Of a stretch of 64,000 nucleotides of DNA, positions 9,192-53,014 are shown piece after piece (the stretch's first letter is position 1; the number at the start of each line of letters is the position of its first letter). The position numbers and the translations under genes were made by a program. Location of the stretch: the NCBI GenBank assembly GCA_018268675.1, contig JAFDWB010000094.1, forward strand, positions 124,001 to 188,000. Reading direction: 5' to 3'. This DNA comes from Actinomycetota bacterium. Its GTDB lineage: Bacteria > Actinomycetota > Thermoleophilia > Solirubrobacterales > 70-9. The notes under the pieces were generated by a model that was not told where the DNA came from, made no database searches, and worked only from the letters and a program-made list of their open reading frames with translations.

Positions 9192-9206
9192 ACCGGTGCG
9201 CCCCCA

Positions 9207-9253
9207 GTGAATTCGCAGAAACCCGCGGATAGCGCGGGGAAGTGCCAACGCAC
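9207..9253. repeat. Dispersed hairpin repeat, family D, copy 1
   Basis: This 47-base unit matches 39 of 47 bases of the unit at 45614-45660. It begins GTGAATTCGCAGAAACCCGC and contains the inner stem CCCGCG/GCGCGGG. In copy 2 the outer arms are perfectly complementary; here they have diverged, and the right part instead takes part in the overlapping hairpin at 9240-9291. Confidence 0.65.
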
Positions 9254-9291
9254 CAGCCCGGGCCGGGCTCGGGCCCGGTGCGTTCGCACTT
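9240..9291. repeat. Long intergenic hairpin overlapping family D copy 1
   Basis: AAGTGCCAACGCACC (9240-9254) pairs with GGTGCGTTCGCACTT (9277-9291) at 14 of 15 positions, and the GC-rich middle CCCGGGCC/GGGCTCGGGC can extend it. It shares its left arm with the family D unit, so the two structures are mutually exclusive. Confidence 0.6.
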
Positions 9292-9417
9292 ATCTACACC
9301 TGTCGTAGCCGACTGCGAACTCACGGGCATGGCGCAGACCAAGGCGCGGCCATCGCCCTCATAACCAGCCGAGGCATGAGGGGGATGGCCGCCCCGCCGG
9401 GCGGCAGCCGGCCCCGC

Positions 9418-26700: not shown

Positions 26701-27555
26701 TCAGCCGACGCTGCGGGCGCCGATCAGGTGGGAGCCCCAGTAGCCGCTGTTCAGCGGGTGTTCCATCACGCCCTGGGACGTCGCCGAGATCGCCGTTTCG
26801 GGGCCGAGGGCGATGCCGACGTGCGAGGCGCCCGGCCCGTCGGTGTCGAAGAAGACGAGGTCGCCGGCGGTGATTTCCGTGAGGTTGACCGGTTCGCCGA
26901 ATTCGAACTGGGCGAAGCTCGTGCGCGGCAGCTGAATCCCGGCCTGGGCGAAGGCGTAGACCATCAGCCCGGAGCAGTCGAACGAGGTGGGCCCGGTGGC
27001 GCCCCACTGGTAGGGCGCCCCGATCGCGGCCCGCGCGGCTTCGATCGCCGGCAGGACCGAGGTCGGCGCGGCGGCGGTCGGCGGGGGAGGCGCCTTGGGC
27101 GCGGGCGCCGTCACCGGGATCCGCAGCAGGAGCAGGACGCGAACGTGCGGGCGGCCGTCCGCGGTCAGGTGGTGGGCGCGCTGGAAGCGGCGGATCGCGG
27201 CGCGGGTCTGGGGGCCGAGGACGCCGTCGACGGGAACCCGGAGCTTGCGCTGCAGGCGCATGATCTGGCTGCGGGTGAGCCGCGCGACCGGCCCGCCGCC
27301 GGCTTCTGGAGCGGGGGCCGGGGCGGTTTCGGTGGGCGCCGGTTCGGTCGGCACCGGTTCCGGAGGGGCGCTCGCGCTCGTCGGCGCCGCACCGCCGGGA
27401 GCCGCGGCACCACCGGTCGTCGCCGCGTTCGCGGACGCCGCGCCCGCGAGCGCCATCAACAGCACCGCCGCGGCGATCCGCAGGGTCAGGGACCGCCGAT
27501 AGTCCCGGCCGCTTCGCCGGGCGCTCGGGGTGGGGTTCGTCTGGCCTCGCTCCAT
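26701..27555 (-). CDS. Secreted NlpC/P60 peptidase with peptidoglycan-binding domain
   Basis: A 284-residue exported hydrolase. Signal peptide: basic RDYRRSLTLRIAAAVLLMAL then AGAASANAA. After a Pro/Ala linker, residues about 85-130 form a PG_binding_1 domain (LTRSQIMRLQRKLRVPVDGV, LGPQTRAAIRRFQRAH). The C-terminal NlpC/P60 domain has APYQWGATGPTSFDCSGLMV with the catalytic Cys, then AGDLVFFDTDGPGASHVGIA with the His. It would cut peptidoglycan stem peptides. Start ATG 27555. A ydaO-type c-di-AMP riboswitch lies immediately upstream. Confidence 0.9.
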   Translation of the reverse strand: MERGQTNPTPSARRSGRDYRRSLTLRIAAAVLLMALAGAASANAATTGGAAAPGGAAPTSASAPPEPVPTEPAPTETAPAPAPEAGGGPVARLTRSQIMRLQRKLRVPVDGVLGPQTRAAIRRFQRAHHLTADGRPHVRVLLLLRIPVTAPAPKAPPPPTAAAPTSVLPAIEAARAAIGAPYQWGATGPTSFDCSGLMVYAFAQAGIQLPRTSFAQFEFGEPVNLTEITAGDLVFFDTDGPGASHVGIALGPETAISATSQGVMEHPLNSGYWGSHLIGARSVG

Positions 27556-27559
27556 CGTT

Positions 27560-27700
27560 GAAATGCCTGCGAGGTGAGCTGACGGGCTCGCGCTCAACGT
27601 GCGCTACGTCCGAAGACGATTCGCCCCAGGCCGCCACTTCGGCGACCGGTGGTTCCCCCGCTCCTCGGATCCTCGGGGACCCGACGATTAGGCAGACCGA
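27560..27700 (-). ncRNA. ydaO/yuaA-type c-di-AMP riboswitch
   Basis: Read on the minus strand, the leader contains GGAGCGGGGGAACCAC near 27650, then GGGGCGAATC near 27625 and CCGTCAGCTCACCTCGCAGG near 27575, in the order and wording of the ydaO-yuaA riboswitch. It ends about five bases before the NlpC/P60 start. In actinobacteria this riboswitch controls cell-wall peptidase genes and turns them off when c-di-AMP is high. Boundaries are approximate. Confidence 0.85.
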
Positions 27701-27770
27701 CACTCAAGCACATCGAGGCGACGCCGTCCAGGGCAGATCGATCGGCCGCCCCCACAAGGGGGCCGACCGC

Positions 27771-31841: not shown

Positions 31842-31874
31842 CCCGCGGGCCTAGAGGTGGATTCAAGGGACGCG

Positions 31875-31924
31875 GGCCGTCTCGTCCACGACCCTGGCGG
31901 GCTGTGGCCGTGGCCGAGACGGCC
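31875..31924. repeat. Dispersed palindrome, family C, copy 1
   Basis: GGCCGTCTCGTCCACG (31875-31890) pairs with CGTGGCCGAGACGGCC (31909-31924) at 15 of 16 positions around an 18-base spacer. The 50-base unit is nearly identical to 45511-45560. Downstream flank TTCGGGGAGAGGA also matches. The gap 31842-32245 has no gene. Confidence 0.8.
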
Positions 31925-32029
31925 GGGTGTTCGGGGAGAGGACGAAGGGTCGCGGGGGAGTTACGGGAGCGCCACGGGTCCGTCACCGAAGTGGGACCTC
32001 GCCGTCGCCAGGACGACGCCCTCCGTCCA

Positions 32030-32068
32030 GCTGTTCCTTATGCCGGTATACCGGCCATAAGGAACAGC
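32030..32068. repeat. Dispersed palindrome, family B, copy 1
   Basis: GCTGTTCCTTATG (32030-32042) pairs perfectly with CATAAGGAACAGC (32056-32068), and the centre CCGGTATACCGG is itself a palindrome. The unit and about 120 bases around it, including CGCCCTCCGTCCAG before and GTTCCTCCCGTCTTCCTCAG after, match copy 2 at 45693-45745. Confidence 0.82.
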
Positions 32069-32245
32069 GGAAGGGAGTCTGGCCGAGGAGAGGGGAGATC
32101 GTCACAGTTCCTCCCGTCTTCCTCAGACGCCTGGGCGGGGCCTCGATCCCGGCGCTCCTCTCACACGAGACGCCCAGGATGCACCTCGGACGGCCGCCTC
32201 GGCCCGGAGCCTCGGCCGTCTCTCCTCGCAACGGAATCGATTGAC

Positions 32246-42267: not shown

Positions 42268-42648
42268 ATGCCAAAACAGACCAAATCGACCCGAAAAACC
42301 GCGGCGAAAAAAGCGGCGGCGACCCGGTCGAAAAAACCCGCAAAAGCTGCCGGCAAAGGCGCGAAAAAAACCGCCAAAGCCGGGAGTGCGAAAAAAGCAA
42401 CGAAAGCCGTGAAAAAAGCGACCAAAGCCGCGGCGAAAAAACCGGCTGCGAAAAAAGCCTCGGCGAAAAAAGCGGCGAAAAAACCCGCCAAAGCCGCGGC
42501 GAGAAAAACGACGGCGAAATCGAAAGCCAAACCGAAAGCCAAATCGGCCAAAGCGAAATCGACGAAAGCGAAATCGACTTCGAAAGCCGCCAAACCGAAA
42601 GCCAAAACGGCGAGAGCGAAAGCGGCGAAAAGAAGCACGAAAAAATAG
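42268..42648 (+). CDS. Lysine/alanine-rich histone H1-like protein
   Basis: A 126-residue, extremely basic protein made almost only of Ala, Lys, Ser, Thr and Pro (KKAAATRSKKPAKAAGKGAK, KATKAVKKATKAAAKKPAAK, KAKSAKAKSTKAKSTSKAAK). It resembles histone H1 C-tails and bacterial AlgP/HctB or Lsr2-tail-like proteins and would bind DNA nonspecifically. The lysine codons are overwhelmingly AAA, in a genome that otherwise favours AAG and GC, with runs up to seven A's. GAGG lies before the ATG at 42268. A transferred or selectively biased gene is possible. Confidence 0.85.
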   Translation: MPKQTKSTRKTAAKKAAATRSKKPAKAAGKGAKKTAKAGSAKKATKAVKKATKAAAKKPAAKKASAKKAAKKPAKAAARKTTAKSKAKPKAKSAKAKSTKAKSTSKAAKPKAKTARAKAAKRSTKK

Positions 42649-43931: not shown

Positions 43932-45308
43932 CTACGCGCGCGGCAGGCGACGAGCGTCCCACCGGTCGCTTTTTCGTGGCCTCGGCCGGCCGGCCGCGGT
44001 GGCTCTAACGAGGGGCGGGCGGAGTGGGCCGACGGTCGCCTCGACCGCGGCGGCGACGCGGAGGAGGAGCGGCTCGGCGCCGGGCCTGCCGATCAGCTGG
44101 AGGCCCACCGGGAGGCCCTCGACGAGCCCGGCGGGGACCGCGACGATCGGGCAGTCGAGCTGGCTGAGCGGCGCGACGCAGGAGAGGAGGGCGGTGCGGA
44201 CCGGGAGGCGGTTGCCGCGGATGGTCACCTCGGCGGCATCGAGCGGCGGCGCGAGCACCGGGGAGGCCGGGGCGATGACCGCGTCGAAGCCGTCCATCGC
44301 GGCGGCGAAGGCGCGGGTGAACAGGCGGCGGTGGCGCTGGGCGCGCAGGTAGAGCTCGCCGGGGAGCCGGTAGCCCGGCTCGATCCGTGCCCGCACCTCG
44401 GGCGCGTAGCGGTCGCGCCGGCGCTCGAACCAGGGGGCGTGGGCGGCGGCCACCTCAGTCGCCTGGACGAGCCGCTGGATCGCCATCGCGCGGCCGAGGT
44501 CGGGGAGGGCGCAGTCGACGATCTCGGCGCCTCGGTCGGCGAGCCCCGACGCCGCCGCGGCGACTGCCGTCGCGACCGGCTCCTCGGCGAGCGCCTGCAC
44601 CGAGCCCGCCAATCCCAGCCGCAGCCCCGCCACCTCGGGCCGCGGCGCGGACGCGACCGGGCGCCCGGCGAGGACGTCGAGCAGCAGCGCCGCCCGCGTG
44701 ACGTCGGCGGCGAGCGGGCCGACCGCGTCGAGGCTCCAGGCCAGCGGCACCACGCCGTCGGCCGGCACGAGGCCGCGCGTGGGGCGGATGCCGACCACCC
44801 CGCAGAGCGCCGCCGGGAGGCGGATCGAACCGCTGGTGTCGGTGCCGATCGCGCCCTCCGCCATCCCCGCCGCGACCGCCGCCGCCGGCCCCGAGCTCGA
44901 GCCGCCGGCCAGCCGCGCCGGGTCCCACGGGTTGCGGCAGTCGCCCTTGTGCGGGTTGCGGCCGTCGATCCCGCAGGCGAACTCGTTGGTGTTGCCCTTG
45001 CCGACGACTACTGCGCCGGCCGCCCGCAGCCGCGCCACCACCGTCGCGTCCTCCTCGGGATGGCGAACCCAGCCGGCCGCCCCCGCCGTGGTCGGCATCC
45101 CGGCGACGTCGACGATGTCCTTGACGCAGATCGGCATCCCGGCGAGTGGCAGCCGCCCGCCCCCGCCGGCCGCCACCCGCGCCTCGACTTCGGCCGCCTC
45201 CGCCCGCGCCCCTTCGCGGTCGAGGTGGAGATAGGCGTTCAGGCTCGGGTTCAGCCGCTCGGCCGCGGCGATCGCCGCCTCGACCCGCTCCTCCACCCGC
45301 CCGCTCAC
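43932..45308 (-). CDS. Amidase signature-family amidase
   Basis: A 458-residue amidase of the GatA-like family. The catalytic triad residues are visible: Lys63 in GMPICVKDIVD, cis-Ser near 138 in AGGSSSGPAAAVA, nucleophile Ser161 in TDTSGSIRLPAALCGVVG. TRGLVPADGVVPLAWSLDAV follows. It starts at GTG 45308 overlapping a 44-codon gene. Substrate unknown; allophanate or amide hydrolysis are typical roles. Confidence 0.93.
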   Translation of the reverse strand: MSGRVEERVEAAIAAAERLNPSLNAYLHLDREGARAEAAEVEARVAAGGGGRLPLAGMPICVKDIVDVAGMPTTAGAAGWVRHPEEDATVVARLRAAGAVVVGKGNTNEFACGIDGRNPHKGDCRNPWDPARLAGGSSSGPAAAVAAGMAEGAIGTDTSGSIRLPAALCGVVGIRPTRGLVPADGVVPLAWSLDAVGPLAADVTRAALLLDVLAGRPVASAPRPEVAGLRLGLAGSVQALAEEPVATAVAAAASGLADRGAEIVDCALPDLGRAMAIQRLVQATEVAAAHAPWFERRRDRYAPEVRARIEPGYRLPGELYLRAQRHRRLFTRAFAAAMDGFDAVIAPASPVLAPPLDAAEVTIRGNRLPVRTALLSCVAPLSQLDCPIVAVPAGLVEGLPVGLQLIGRPGAEPLLLRVAAAVEATVGPLRPPLVRATAAGRPRPRKSDRWDARRLPRA

Positions 45309-45439
45309 TGCCAGTCCTGCGGCCCCAGAACCGGCGGCACCCCGTCGACCTCCTCCTCCGACAGCCCCGCCGCAAGCCCCTCGAGCTCCGCCAGCTCGGC
45401 GGCGACCAGGGTGTCGGGATCGTCGGGCGGGGTCGTCAT
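45305..45439 (-). CDS. Tiny acidic protein coupled to the amidase
   Basis: A 44-residue frame starting MTTPPDDPDTLVAAELAELE and ending in SEEEVDGVPPVLGPQDWQ. Its TGA overlaps the amidase GTG, a typical coupled arrangement. It is strongly acidic and helical, reminiscent of GatC/AtzG-type small partners, but too short to place firmly. No family recognised. Confidence 0.5.
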   Translation of the reverse strand: MTTPPDDPDTLVAAELAELEGLAAGLSEEEVDGVPPVLGPQDWQ

Positions 45440-45510
45440 CTGGGCAAGGCTAGACGGTTGGTTCGGGGTGTCGGGGCCGGGGAAGCTGGCGCCCGATGGC
45501 ACAAGGGACG

Positions 45511-45560
45511 GGCCGTCTCGGCCACGACCCTGGCGGGCTGTGGCCGTGGCCGAGACGGCC
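45511..45560. repeat. Dispersed palindrome, family C, copy 2
   Basis: GGCCGTCTCGGCCACG (45511-45526) pairs perfectly with CGTGGCCGAGACGGCC (45545-45560). The 18-base spacer is identical to that of copy 1 at 31875-31924. Part of a 538-base gap (45440-45977) that holds families C, D and B in order. Confidence 0.82.
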
Positions 45561-45611
45561 GGGTCTCCGGGGAGAGGAAGGATCGGCACGCCGCAGCAGG
45601 GACGCACGCCC

Positions 45612-45662
45612 CGGTGAGTTCGCAGAAACCCGCGCCATGCGCGGGAAAGTGCGAACTCACCG
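45612..45662. repeat. Dispersed hairpin repeat, family D, copy 2
   Basis: CGGTGAGTTCGCA (45612-45624) pairs perfectly with TGCGAACTCACCG (45650-45662), a 13-bp outer stem, with inner CCCGCGC/GCGCGGG at 45629-45645 and a CAT loop. GAAA and AAAG face each other between the stems. It is inserted between the C and B units here, but not in the other C-B module. Confidence 0.82.
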
Positions 45663-45692
45663 TGAGGGGACGGTGCGCGCGAAGGACGCCCT

Positions 45693-45745
45693 CCGTCCAG
45701 CTGTTCCTTATGCCGGTATGTCGGCCATAAGGAACAGCTGGACGG
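45693..45745. repeat. Dispersed palindrome, family B, copy 2
   Basis: CCGTCCAGCTGTTCCTTATG (45693-45712) pairs perfectly with CATAAGGAACAGCTGGACGG (45726-45745), a 20-bp stem around CCGGTATGTCGGC. Downstream it shares GAGATC...GTTCCTCCCGTCTTCC with copy 1. Confidence 0.85.
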
Positions 45746-45977
45746 GGTCGGGCCGAGGAAAGGGGAGATCCGTCACCGTTCCTCCCGTCTTCCTCAGACG
45801 CCCAGGACGCAACACGGACGGCCGCCCCGCCCCCGGACAACGCGCCTTCGTCCCTCCCCCGACCCACCTCGGACGTCCCGCCGGCCCCGAACGCCGCCCC
45901 GCGCCCACATCCCCCGCCAACAGTCGCGGCGCGCTAATCTACTTAAACCTGATCGGAATTAAGGAAGAGGAGTCAAG

Positions 45978-46637
45978 ATGGCATTGAGACTTGGGGACGA
46001 AGCGCCGAACTTCGAGGCGGAGACCACCGAGGGTCACATCAACTTCCACGACTGGCTGGGCGACTCGTGGGGTGTGCTGTTCTCGCACCCGAAGGCGTTC
46101 ACGCCGGTCTGCACCACCGAGCTCGGCTACATGGCCTCGATCGAGCCGGAGTTCGCCAAGCGGAACACCAAGATCATCGGCCTCTCCGTCGACCCGCTCG
46201 AGAGCAACGAGGGCTGGTCGAAGGACATCGAGGAGACGCAGGGCACGGCGCCGAACTACCCGCTGATCTCCGACGCCGACTTTGCCGTCTCGAAGGCCTA
46301 CGGGATGCTCCCCGCCGATGTCGCGGGCGATGCCGCCGAGCGCACCCCGGCCGACAACCAGACGGTCCGCAACGTCTTCGTCATCGGTCCCGACAAGAAA
46401 GTCAAACTGATCCTCGTCTACCCGATGACCACGGGGCGCAACTTCGACGAGGTGCTGCGCGTGATCGACTCCCTGCAGCTGACCGCCAACAGCAAAGTGG
46501 CGACCCCGGCGCAGTGGCAGGCGGGCGACGACGTGTTCATCTCCGGCTCGGTGAAAAACGACGAGGCCAAGGAGTTGTTCGGCGACTGGGAGGAGCCGAA
46601 GCCCTACATCCGCATCGTCCCCGACCCCTCGAAGTAA
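45978..46637 (+). CDS. 1-Cys peroxiredoxin (Prx6 type)
   Basis: A 219-residue thiol peroxidase reducing H2O2 and organic peroxides. The peroxidatic Cys45 is in FSHPKAFTPVCTTELGYMAS; the C-terminal extension with KVATPAQWQAGDDVFIS and PYIRIVPDPSK is that of Prx6-type enzymes. No resolving Cys is present, so it is 1-Cys. AGGAAGAGGAG precedes the ATG. The upstream AT-rich ACTTAAACCTGATCGGAATT is unlike the surrounding GC-rich DNA and may hold its promoter. Confidence 0.94.
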   Translation: MALRLGDEAPNFEAETTEGHINFHDWLGDSWGVLFSHPKAFTPVCTTELGYMASIEPEFAKRNTKIIGLSVDPLESNEGWSKDIEETQGTAPNYPLISDADFAVSKAYGMLPADVAGDAAERTPADNQTVRNVFVIGPDKKVKLILVYPMTTGRNFDEVLRVIDSLQLTANSKVATPAQWQAGDDVFISGSVKNDEAKELFGDWEEPKPYIRIVPDPSK

Positions 46638-51247: not shown

Positions 51248-53014
51248 TCAGTTGCCGTGCGCGGACTTGTTGAGGCCCGCGGTCGGCTTGCTGACGATGA
51301 CCTTCGCGCAGTCCTGCGGTTCGGGGTCGATCTTGTCGACGATCGCCGTCCCTTCCGGGCGGCCCTTTTCACCGCACTGGATGTACCAGTCGCGGACGGA
51401 GTCGGTGGCGACGATGACGTCGTTCCCGCCGCGGCCGAAGAAGCTGTCGACGCCGGGCTGGCCGATCATCACGTTGGCGCGCGAGTCGCCGATCAGCATG
51501 TCGTTGTCGAAGGAGCCCTCGATGTTCTCGTCGGAGCGCGGGAGGCGGACTTTGTCGCAGTGCTTGACCGCGTCGATCCAGGCCCAGCCTTGGGCCAGCG
51601 AGATGTAGAGCGTGCCGGGGTGGGCCTGGGTCTCGGCGAAGGAGGCGTTGTCTTCCCCGGGGCCGCCGTCGAGGACTCCGCCCGCGCAGCCGCCGCCCGC
51701 CGCCAGCAGGTCGCCGCCGCCTTCGCCGTAGAGGTAGGTCGGCCCGGGCAGGCCGCCGATCAGCCCGTCGGAGCCTTCGCCGCCGTAGAGGTGATCGGAG
51801 CCGGGGCCTGACTGGAGCAGGTCTTCCTCGGGGCCGCCGTGGACCGTGTCGTTGCCGTCGCCGCCGTTGACGCGGACGAAGTCGACCGCTTCGAGGCTGC
51901 TCTTGACTTCGAAGCTGTCGTTGCCGGGCCCGAGATCGGCCATCAGCCAGCGCGCCGGGCCGAAGGTCGGGCAGGTGACCTGCTTCGGTTCGCCGGGCGT
52001 GGGCGCGCAGTCGGAGCCTGCGGCGAGGCGCGCCGCGCCGCTCACCGTGAAGTACCCGGTTGCCCGCGGCGCTTCGCTCCCCTTCGGTTCGGCGGGCGTG
52101 GCTTCGCCGGGAGCGCCCGCGGTCCCCGCTTCGATTTCCGTGTAGGAGACGGTGAGGTGGTCGGGGCCGGCGCCGCCGACGATCTGCAGCCCGCCGCCGC
52201 CTTCCGGGCTGGGGTCGAGGGTGACGTAGGCGGAGCCGCGCGGCGCCGGTTCCCTGCCGCAGGAGATGCGGACCGCACCGCCCTCGCACTTGTCGTCGCC
52301 CTGGCCGCCGTTCAGCGTGTCGCGCCCGCCGCCGCCGCGGATCGTGTCGTTGCCGGGCCCGCCGACGATCAGGTTGGGGTGCTTGTCGCCGATCAGGGTG
52401 TCGTGGAAGGCGGAGCCTTCGATCGACTCGAAGCGGAAGAGGCGGTCGTGGCCGTCGCCGAGCGCCTTGTGCCGGGGCAGCGAGACCCAGACACCGCTGC
52501 CCTTGCGGCCCGCCACCGCGGTCGAGAAGGAGGCGATGTCACCCTTGCCGGGGCCGCCGTCCATGCGGTCGTAGCCGTAGTCGCCGCGGACGAGGTCTTC
52601 GTTGCCGGGGCCGCCGTTGACGGTGTCGATGCCGAGCCCGCCGCTCACTTCGTCGCGGTTGCCGGGGCCGCCGCTGACGTGGTCGTCGCCGAGGTCGCCG
52701 AAGACGCGGTCGGTCCCCTGGCCGCCTTCGATCCAGTCGTTGCCGCGGCCGCCGTGGATCAGATCGTTCCCCGGGCCGCCGCAGATGACGTCGTTGCCGA
52801 GCCCGCCGTAGACGGTGTCGTCGCCCGGCCCGGCCCAGATCACGTCGGCCTTGTCGGTGCCGTGGATGACGTCGTTGCCGCCGGTGCCGACGATCGTCGC
52901 CTTCCTCCCGTCGCACATCGGCGTGGCGCCGGTTTCGGCGGCGGCGGGGGTGACGGCGAGGAAGGCGCCGATCGCGCAGGCGAGCAGGACGATGGGGACG
53001 AGACGGCGCGACAC
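51248..53014 (-). CDS. RTX-repeat (hemolysin-type calcium-binding) exported protein
   Basis: A 588-residue protein. Starts at GTG 53014 with SRRLVPIVLLACAIGAFLAV, a signal peptide ending TPAAAE. Residues about 40-155 and 175-215 carry tandem GGxGxDxU nonapeptides such as GGNDVIHGTDKADVIWAGPG and GDDTVYGGLGNDVICGGPGN; another set lies near 340-420 and 500-530. These bind Ca2+ and form beta-rolls. No lipase or protease catalytic domain was recognised between them. RTX repeats are usually exported; here a Sec signal rather than a type I system is used. Highly repetitive, so assembly errors are possible. Confidence 0.87.
   Translation of the reverse strand: MSRRLVPIVLLACAIGAFLAVTPAAAETGATPMCDGRKATIVGTGGNDVIHGTDKADVIWAGPGDDTVYGGLGNDVICGGPGNDLIHGGRGNDWIEGGQGTDRVFGDLGDDHVSGGPGNRDEVSGGLGIDTVNGGPGNEDLVRGDYGYDRMDGGPGKGDIASFSTAVAGRKGSGVWVSLPRHKALGDGHDRLFRFESIEGSAFHDTLIGDKHPNLIVGGPGNDTIRGGGGRDTLNGGQGDDKCEGGAVRISCGREPAPRGSAYVTLDPSPEGGGGLQIVGGAGPDHLTVSYTEIEAGTAGAPGEATPAEPKGSEAPRATGYFTVSGAARLAAGSDCAPTPGEPKQVTCPTFGPARWLMADLGPGNDSFEVKSSLEAVDFVRVNGGDGNDTVHGGPEEDLLQSGPGSDHLYGGEGSDGLIGGLPGPTYLYGEGGGDLLAAGGGCAGGVLDGGPGEDNASFAETQAHPGTLYISLAQGWAWIDAVKHCDKVRLPRSDENIEGSFDNDMLIGDSRANVMIGQPGVDSFFGRGGNDVIVATDSVRDWYIQCGEKGRPEGTAIVDKIDPEPQDCAKVIVSKPTAGLNKSAHGN

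What the first reader, a model, noticed from the sequence alone, without database searches (positions are those of the whole stretch)
45612..45662. Family D hairpin with mirrored GAAA/AAAG internal loop
A 13-bp outer stem and 7-bp inner stem are separated by GAAA opposite AAAG. The 9207-9253 copy keeps GCAGAAACCCGCG and GCGGGGAAGTGC wording (39 of 47). The conserved internal loop suggests a structured RNA or protein-bound DNA form rather than chance.
Basis: seen in the sequence. Interest (0 to 1): 0.6.

Follow-up and report, generated by a model that had tools for sequence, protein, structure and literature searches.

The report
Dispersed intergenic DNA hairpin repeat
This hairpin is one of many copies of a short palindromic DNA repeat scattered between genes in one bacterial genus; it behaves like a small mobile hairpin similar to known REP repeats, and not like a single-locus RNA.

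Summary
The hairpin at 45612-45662 is real and as described, and so is the 39-of-47 match at 9207-9253. It is one copy of a dispersed palindrome: at least 78 places are listed in the window's own genome, more in four congeners, none found by DNA search in 29 genomes of other genera. All 40 home copies examined are intergenic. In tandem spacers the strand agrees with the genes as often as not (21 vs 21, four genomes). At 20 of 23 two-flank orthologous sites the relative has no copy. Across species both stems covary strongly, so the hairpin is under constraint. The internal loop is open in 62 of 62 copies from two species (19 exactly GAAA/AAAG) but fully paired in 17 of 43 copies from two others with the same outer stem, so it marks a subfamily. 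Best reading: a REP/BIME-like non-autonomous hairpin, probably copied as single-stranded DNA by an unidentified enzyme; Y1/RAYT was found in 0 of 12 congeners. New member of a known kind, modest interest.

The parts
45612..45624 (+). outer stem, 5' arm (CGGTGAGTTCGCA); GTTCGCA is its near-invariant part
   Evidence: columns 9-15 nearly or fully invariant in 103 copies
45625..45628 (+). 5' side of internal loop, GAAA
   Evidence: state per copy
45629..45645 (+). inner stem CCCGCGC / GCGCGGG with CAT loop
   Evidence: covariation across species
45646..45649 (+). 3' side of internal loop, AAAG (family consensus is RAA followed by G or C)
45650..45662 (+). outer stem, 3' arm (TGCGAACTCACCG)
9203..9260 (+). 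second copy of the same repeat in the window (core 9207-9253), outer arm partly decayed
   Evidence: 55.4 bits with model R1; 39 of 47 identical
9271..9328 (-). sister hairpin: same outer stem and 25-nt interior, different inner sequence
   Evidence: 34.0 bits with R1; item I5
45511..45560 (.). neighbouring hairpin family H1, part of the same composite spacer element
45693..45745 (.). neighbouring hairpin family H3, part of the same composite spacer element
31860..32110 (+). second composite with H1 and H3 but without the finding's hairpin

Best explanation
It is one copy of a REP-like interspersed palindrome of about 50 bp: a non-autonomous mobile DNA hairpin that spreads through intergenic DNA, alone or inside composite spacer elements with other hairpin families. 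Shown: dispersal, intergenic position, lineage-specific presence, constraint on the hairpin. Inferred: a copy exposed as single-stranded DNA (lagging strand or transcription bubble) folds; an enzyme acting in trans reads the near-invariant GTTCGCA/TGCGAAC outer stem together with the hairpin and copies or moves it to new sites; copies survive mainly downstream of genes and away from promoters. The inner module can differ in sequence if it stays palindromic and 25 nt long. The GAAA/RAAG mismatch block marks one successful subfamily. The enzyme is not identified. I put the dispersed-mobile-palindrome part at 0.8 and the single-stranded-DNA, enzyme-in-trans step at about 0.45.
For: Copy number: 69 BLAST matches (both strands of about 40 places) for a 91-bp query; at least 78 distinct places among the G000 rows listed for model R1. 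GTGAGTTCGCA occurs 131 times in the home genome against 1 for the reversed control. Distribution: DNA query found in 5 of 12 congeners, own genome included, and 0 of 29 genomes of other genera. Position: 40 of 40 home copies intergenic; over four genomes 38 convergent, 42 tandem, 10 divergent, 10 inside a called ORF, 5 at contig ends, of 105. Empty sites: at four home loci 14 of 14 two-flank comparisons lack the repeat; the focal spacer lacks it in 4 of 4. Fold constraint. Fixed length: 25 nt between GTTCGCA and TGCGAAC in 103 of 105. In the window 8 strong hairpins lie in 10.2 kb of spacer, 0 in 53.8 kb of genes; 10 rounds of shuffled spacers gave 0.
Against: No mobilising enzyme found: PF01797 (Y1/RAYT) 0 of 12 congeners, with the control ringing in 5 of 14 known genomes. 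Most insertions seen are longer than the hairpin (about 200-330 bp), so the unit that moves may be larger, or the spacers may have been lost in the relatives. One site is shared by G000 and G008. No clean target duplication was seen. Copies of one genome alone show no covariation. Ten of 65 copies in the relatives lie inside called ORFs.
Confidence: 0.8

Rival explanations
1. Structured RNA or small-RNA gene whose GAAA/AAAG loop binds a protein.
For: Strong predicted RNA fold; loop open in 62 of 62 copies of two species; GAAA/GAAG kept in G011 around a new inner stem; covariation.
Against: Either strand faces transcription equally (21 vs 21), G.U 35 vs A.C 50; loop closed in 17 of 43 copies of two other species; no Rfam family above cut-off; no promoter or terminator match around the focal copy.
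Confidence: 0.08
2. Bidirectional terminator or 3'-end stabiliser of mRNA: a hairpin is kept downstream of genes because transcripts end or are protected there.
For: 38 convergent vs 10 divergent; distance to gene 3' ends is shorter than to starts in all four genomes (medians 138 vs 285, 9.5 vs 125.5, 14 vs 48, 239.5 vs 376); at one orthologous site G008 has this hairpin and G000 a different one.
Against: The focal copy is in a divergent spacer; no U-tract; orthologous spacers without any strong hairpin are common. A 3' bias is also the rule for REPs (PMC3733652, section read). It could be a secondary use.
Confidence: 0.2
3. MITE of a conventional DDE transposon, with the outer stem as its terminal inverted repeats.
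For: The outer stem is the most conserved part and the interior can be swapped; repeat-bearing composites carry a second copy of a roughly 12-bp direct repeat that a composite without the hairpin has once (by eye).
Against: No autonomous element with these ends was found. The two 1.2-kb pairs of inverted arms examined enclose an ordinary gene that looks like an FAH-family hydrolase (G003; name recalled) and an IS30 inserted into a copy (G000); that IS30 is single copy in the home genome. The interior is kept at 25 nt and palindromic, which a MITE interior need not be.
Confidence: 0.15

Closest known systems
REP sequences (GTAG and CGTC superfamilies; PMC3733652)
   Same: Short, high-copy, extragenic imperfect palindromes; species-specific families; mostly between convergent or unidirectional genes and near 3' ends; CGTC repeats also lack a dedicated transposase (abstract, one section and three passages read).
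   Different: No unpaired GTAG or CGTC tag; about 50 bp against 20-40 bp; no Y1/RAYT gene in 12 of 12 congeners.
BIMEs (bacterial interspersed mosaic elements; term from the PMC2817692 abstract in the listing)
   Same: The hairpin sits in composites with other hairpin families in fixed order.
   Different: The partners are unrelated hairpins, whereas BIMEs are described as regularly spaced REPs in alternating orientation; alternation was not tested here.
Stem-loop sequence families of bacterial genomes (PMC2267715; abstract read)
   Same: Repeated intergenic families that share a predicted stem-loop.
   Different: That survey covered 40 genomes; whether any was close to this genus was not checked. 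A constant outer stem with swapped inner stem is not mentioned in the abstract.
REPINs / TnpA-REP hairpins (PMC3116915, PMC8266576; search listing only)
   Same: Small hairpins thought to be mobilised in trans.
   Different: The cognate enzyme family was not found here.

Membership tests
REP (GTAG/CGTC) | Small extragenic palindrome in high copy number | tested here: met
   At least 78 places listed; 40 of 40 home copies intergenic
REP (GTAG/CGTC) | Unpaired GTAG or CGTC tag at one end | tested here: not met
   Consensus of 40 and of 103 copies shows no such tag; ends read CCCGGTGAG...CTCACCGGGG
REP (GTAG/CGTC) | RAYT (Y1) transposase in the genome (GTAG class) | tested here: not met
   PF01797 in 0 of 12 congeners; control rings in 5 of 14
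REP (GTAG/CGTC) | Bias to convergent/unidirectional spacers and gene 3' ends | tested here: met
   38 convergent, 42 tandem, 10 divergent of 105, with a home-made gene finder
BIME | Mosaic of palindromic units in alternating orientation | tested here: inconclusive
   Composites with H1 and H3 in fixed order; alternation not counted
Rfam RNA family | Match above a family's gathering score | tested here: not met
   None at the site; the only sub-threshold hit over the repeat itself is a microRNA model at 20.5 bits against a cut-off of 85
Intrinsic terminator | G+C hairpin followed by a U-tract | tested here: not met
   0 found in 45300-46050
MITE | Target-site duplication and a matching autonomous transposon | tested here: inconclusive
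   No clean duplication at empty sites; one roughly 12-bp direct-repeat lead; no autonomous element seen in the two candidates opened

The most novel reading that the evidence does not exclude
A two-part mobile palindrome: an invariant 7-bp handle (GTTCGCA/TGCGAAC) around an exchangeable 25-nt palindromic cartridge whose length is fixed while its sequence is rewritten by compensatory changes, moved by an enzyme that is not of the Y1/RAYT family, in a genus whose spacers hold several such hairpin families.
Probability: 0.3. Interest if true: 0.55.

Novelty: new member of a known kind. Interest (0 to 1): 0.3.

Why it matters
REP-like hairpins are usually explained by RAYT enzymes. A genus rich in untagged hairpins with no detectable Y1 protein would be a system in which to look for another mobilising enzyme, and its constant-handle, variable-interior design gives a direct test of what such an enzyme reads. 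For annotation, it warns that covariation in an intergenic hairpin does not by itself prove an RNA gene.

Tried and rejected
Chance: rejected. Single-locus RNA gene: rejected as the main reading. Covariation within the home genome alone: none (1 pair and 1 cell with both sides changed, 412 of 500 shuffles as high); only the four-species set is informative. Rows dropped: for alignment A5 I left out 2 of 105 copies that have a 1-nt deletion (L021, L037), so 103 rows, 101 distinct. The 20 loci per relative were taken from the top of hit lists, so they are not a random sample.

Autonomous element with these ends: two 1.2-kb inverted pairs were fetched (G003 C105, G000 C21). The first encloses an FAH-like gene with full copies in the two spacers; the second is an IS30-family transposase (NF033563, 132 bits) inserted in a copy, single copy in the genome. 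Phages, plasmids and viral contigs: no match. The one hit outside the order, a Balneolales record (L064), is a bare 19-mer without a hairpin, about what chance gives in that much DNA. A common GTTC/GAAC core in all hairpin families: seen in 43 of 103 home hairpins, but single-linkage clustering merged families and no null was run, so it is not claimed. Literature: three searches listed no description of this repeat; only three papers were opened.

Full report
What is there. The hairpin at 45612-45662 is exactly as described, on both strands, and is far outside chance. It lies in the 538-bp spacer between a gene pair on the - strand (amidase, PF01425, preceded by a 45-codon frame) and a peroxiredoxin (PF00578) on the + strand, which is a divergent spacer. 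Two unrelated hairpins flank it, H1 at 45511-45560 and H3 at 45693-45745. The second copy at 9207-9253 is 39 of 47 identical, and a sister hairpin with the same outer stem but another interior follows at 9271-9328.

Census. A 91-bp query gives 69 matches in the window's own genome (the palindrome is hit on both strands). Among 41 genomes it is found in 5 of 12 congeners (own genome included) and 0 of 29 genomes from other genera. A covariance model built from 40 home copies (R1) reports 145 matches in the home genome, 93 in G003, 128 in G008, 122 in G011, 10 in G006, and 0-2 in each of the other ten genomes tried. At most 150 candidates per genome were scored and both strands count. I count 78 distinct home places among the listed rows. 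G003:C148 has the same length (24,777) as record JAOPZF010000048.1, so G003 is probably Solirubrobacterales isolate RYN_247; the organism of the window itself was not named by any tool.

Context. With a codon-usage gene finder written for this task, 40 of 40 home copies are intergenic. Over 105 copies of four genomes: 38 convergent, 42 tandem, 10 divergent, 10 inside a called ORF (all in the other three genomes, on which the finder was not trained), 5 at contig ends. In tandem spacers the repeat points with the genes 21 times and against them 21 times. Mismatches of G.U type on the defined strand number 35 and of A.C type (G.U on the other strand) 50. So no strand is preferred, which fits a DNA-level element better than an RNA.

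Insertion history. At four home loci checked against five relatives, both flanks align in 14 cases and the repeat is absent in 14 of 14; in three further cases (G008 at L022, G007 and G011 at L037) only one flank aligned and these are not counted. In one of the 14, G006 has a different hairpin there. Relatives mostly have a few dozen bases between the genes where the home genome has about 90-360 bases with one or two hairpins. At the focal locus both flanks align in G003, G006, G007 and G008 and none has the repeat; they have coding sequence there instead, and the G006 protein matches CitMHS and ArsB transporters. Five further comparisons came from loci already fetched: L047 against G011 (absent), L046 against G008 (absent), L027 against G003 and G008 (a copy elsewhere in the same spacer), and L026 against G008 (a copy at the same point). 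In all, 20 of 23 lack it, 2 have it at another point, 1 shares it. At a second site in the last pair, G008 has this hairpin where G000 has an unrelated one.

The fold and the loop. Within the home genome there is no covariation: the copies are too alike. Across four species both stems covary: for example A-T to C-G at the eighth position (33 sequences) and G-C to A-U or C-G in the inner stem. The 25-nt interior is kept in 103 of 105 copies. In G008 and G011 the same positions are fully paired in 8 of 22 and 9 of 21 copies (CTTT/AAAG, CTTA/TAAG, GTTA/TAAC, GTTC/GAAC, GTTT/AAAC, GTAA/TTAC), and partly paired in others. In G011, GAAA/GAAG returns around a different inner stem, TGACCGC/GCGGTCA. 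So an open-loop subfamily and closed-loop subfamilies share one outer stem and one length. Pair counting at the loop positions themselves gives 35% of cells paired.

Composite elements. In home loci H1, this repeat and H3 recur in order. Of 11 H1 sites found in the fetched loci (chosen because they hold the repeat, so biased), 10 carry the repeat about 59 bp after H1. The window's other composite (31860-32110) has H1 and H3 but not the repeat. Its junction appears to have one copy of a GAGGAAGGGTCG-like repeat that flanks the missing part in other composites (by eye). This could be a deletion between direct repeats or an insertion with a target duplication.

Explanation. The best fit is a REP-like, non-autonomous mobile hairpin. 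Copying from single-stranded DNA by an enzyme in trans is inference: it explains why the fold is kept while the strand does not matter, why a short outer sequence is nearly invariant, and why the interior can be rewritten if it stays palindromic. The best-known enzyme family for this, Y1/RAYT (PF01797), is missing from 12 of 12 congeners with a working control; draft genomes of 78-100% completeness leave some doubt for each, little for all. An effect on transcripts at gene ends may be a secondary use.

Known kinds. It works like a REP and shares REP habits of location (PMC3733652: abstract and the section on genome distribution read). It does not meet two defining features that I tested, the GTAG/CGTC tag and the RAYT gene, so I do not file it as a REP. 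It is a new family among interspersed stem-loop repeats.

Noticed in passing
window 31860-32110 and 45495-45790: Two composites of hairpin families H1 and H3, one with and one without the finding's hairpin; the module that bears the hairpin seems flanked by a roughly 12-bp direct repeat.
   Followed up: partly
window spacers: Eight strong hairpins of several families lie in 10.2 kb of spacer and none in 53.8 kb of genes; spacers of this genome are full of unrelated palindromes.
   Followed up: partly
L109 1745-2935 (G000 C21): IS30-family transposase gene, seemingly frameshifted, inserted in a copy of the hairpin; the two part-hairpins beside it have opposite orientation.
   Followed up: partly
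window 27549-27704, - strand: c-di-AMP riboswitch (RF00379, 67 bits).
   Followed up: no
window 42270-42648, + strand: Reading frame with a long Lys/Ala/Pro-rich, histone H1-like tail (label recalled); my gene finder did not call it.
   Followed up: no
window 51248-53014, - strand: Gene with many repeats at spacings that are multiples of 3, often 27 bases, suggestive of RTX-like glycine/aspartate repeats (label recalled).
   Followed up: no
congeners G000-G011: The repeat-rich genomes are large ones (4.0-4.3 Mb); the small ones (2.4-2.9 Mb) have none or nearly none, though G006 (4.7 Mb) has few and G007 (3.8 Mb) none.
   Followed up: no
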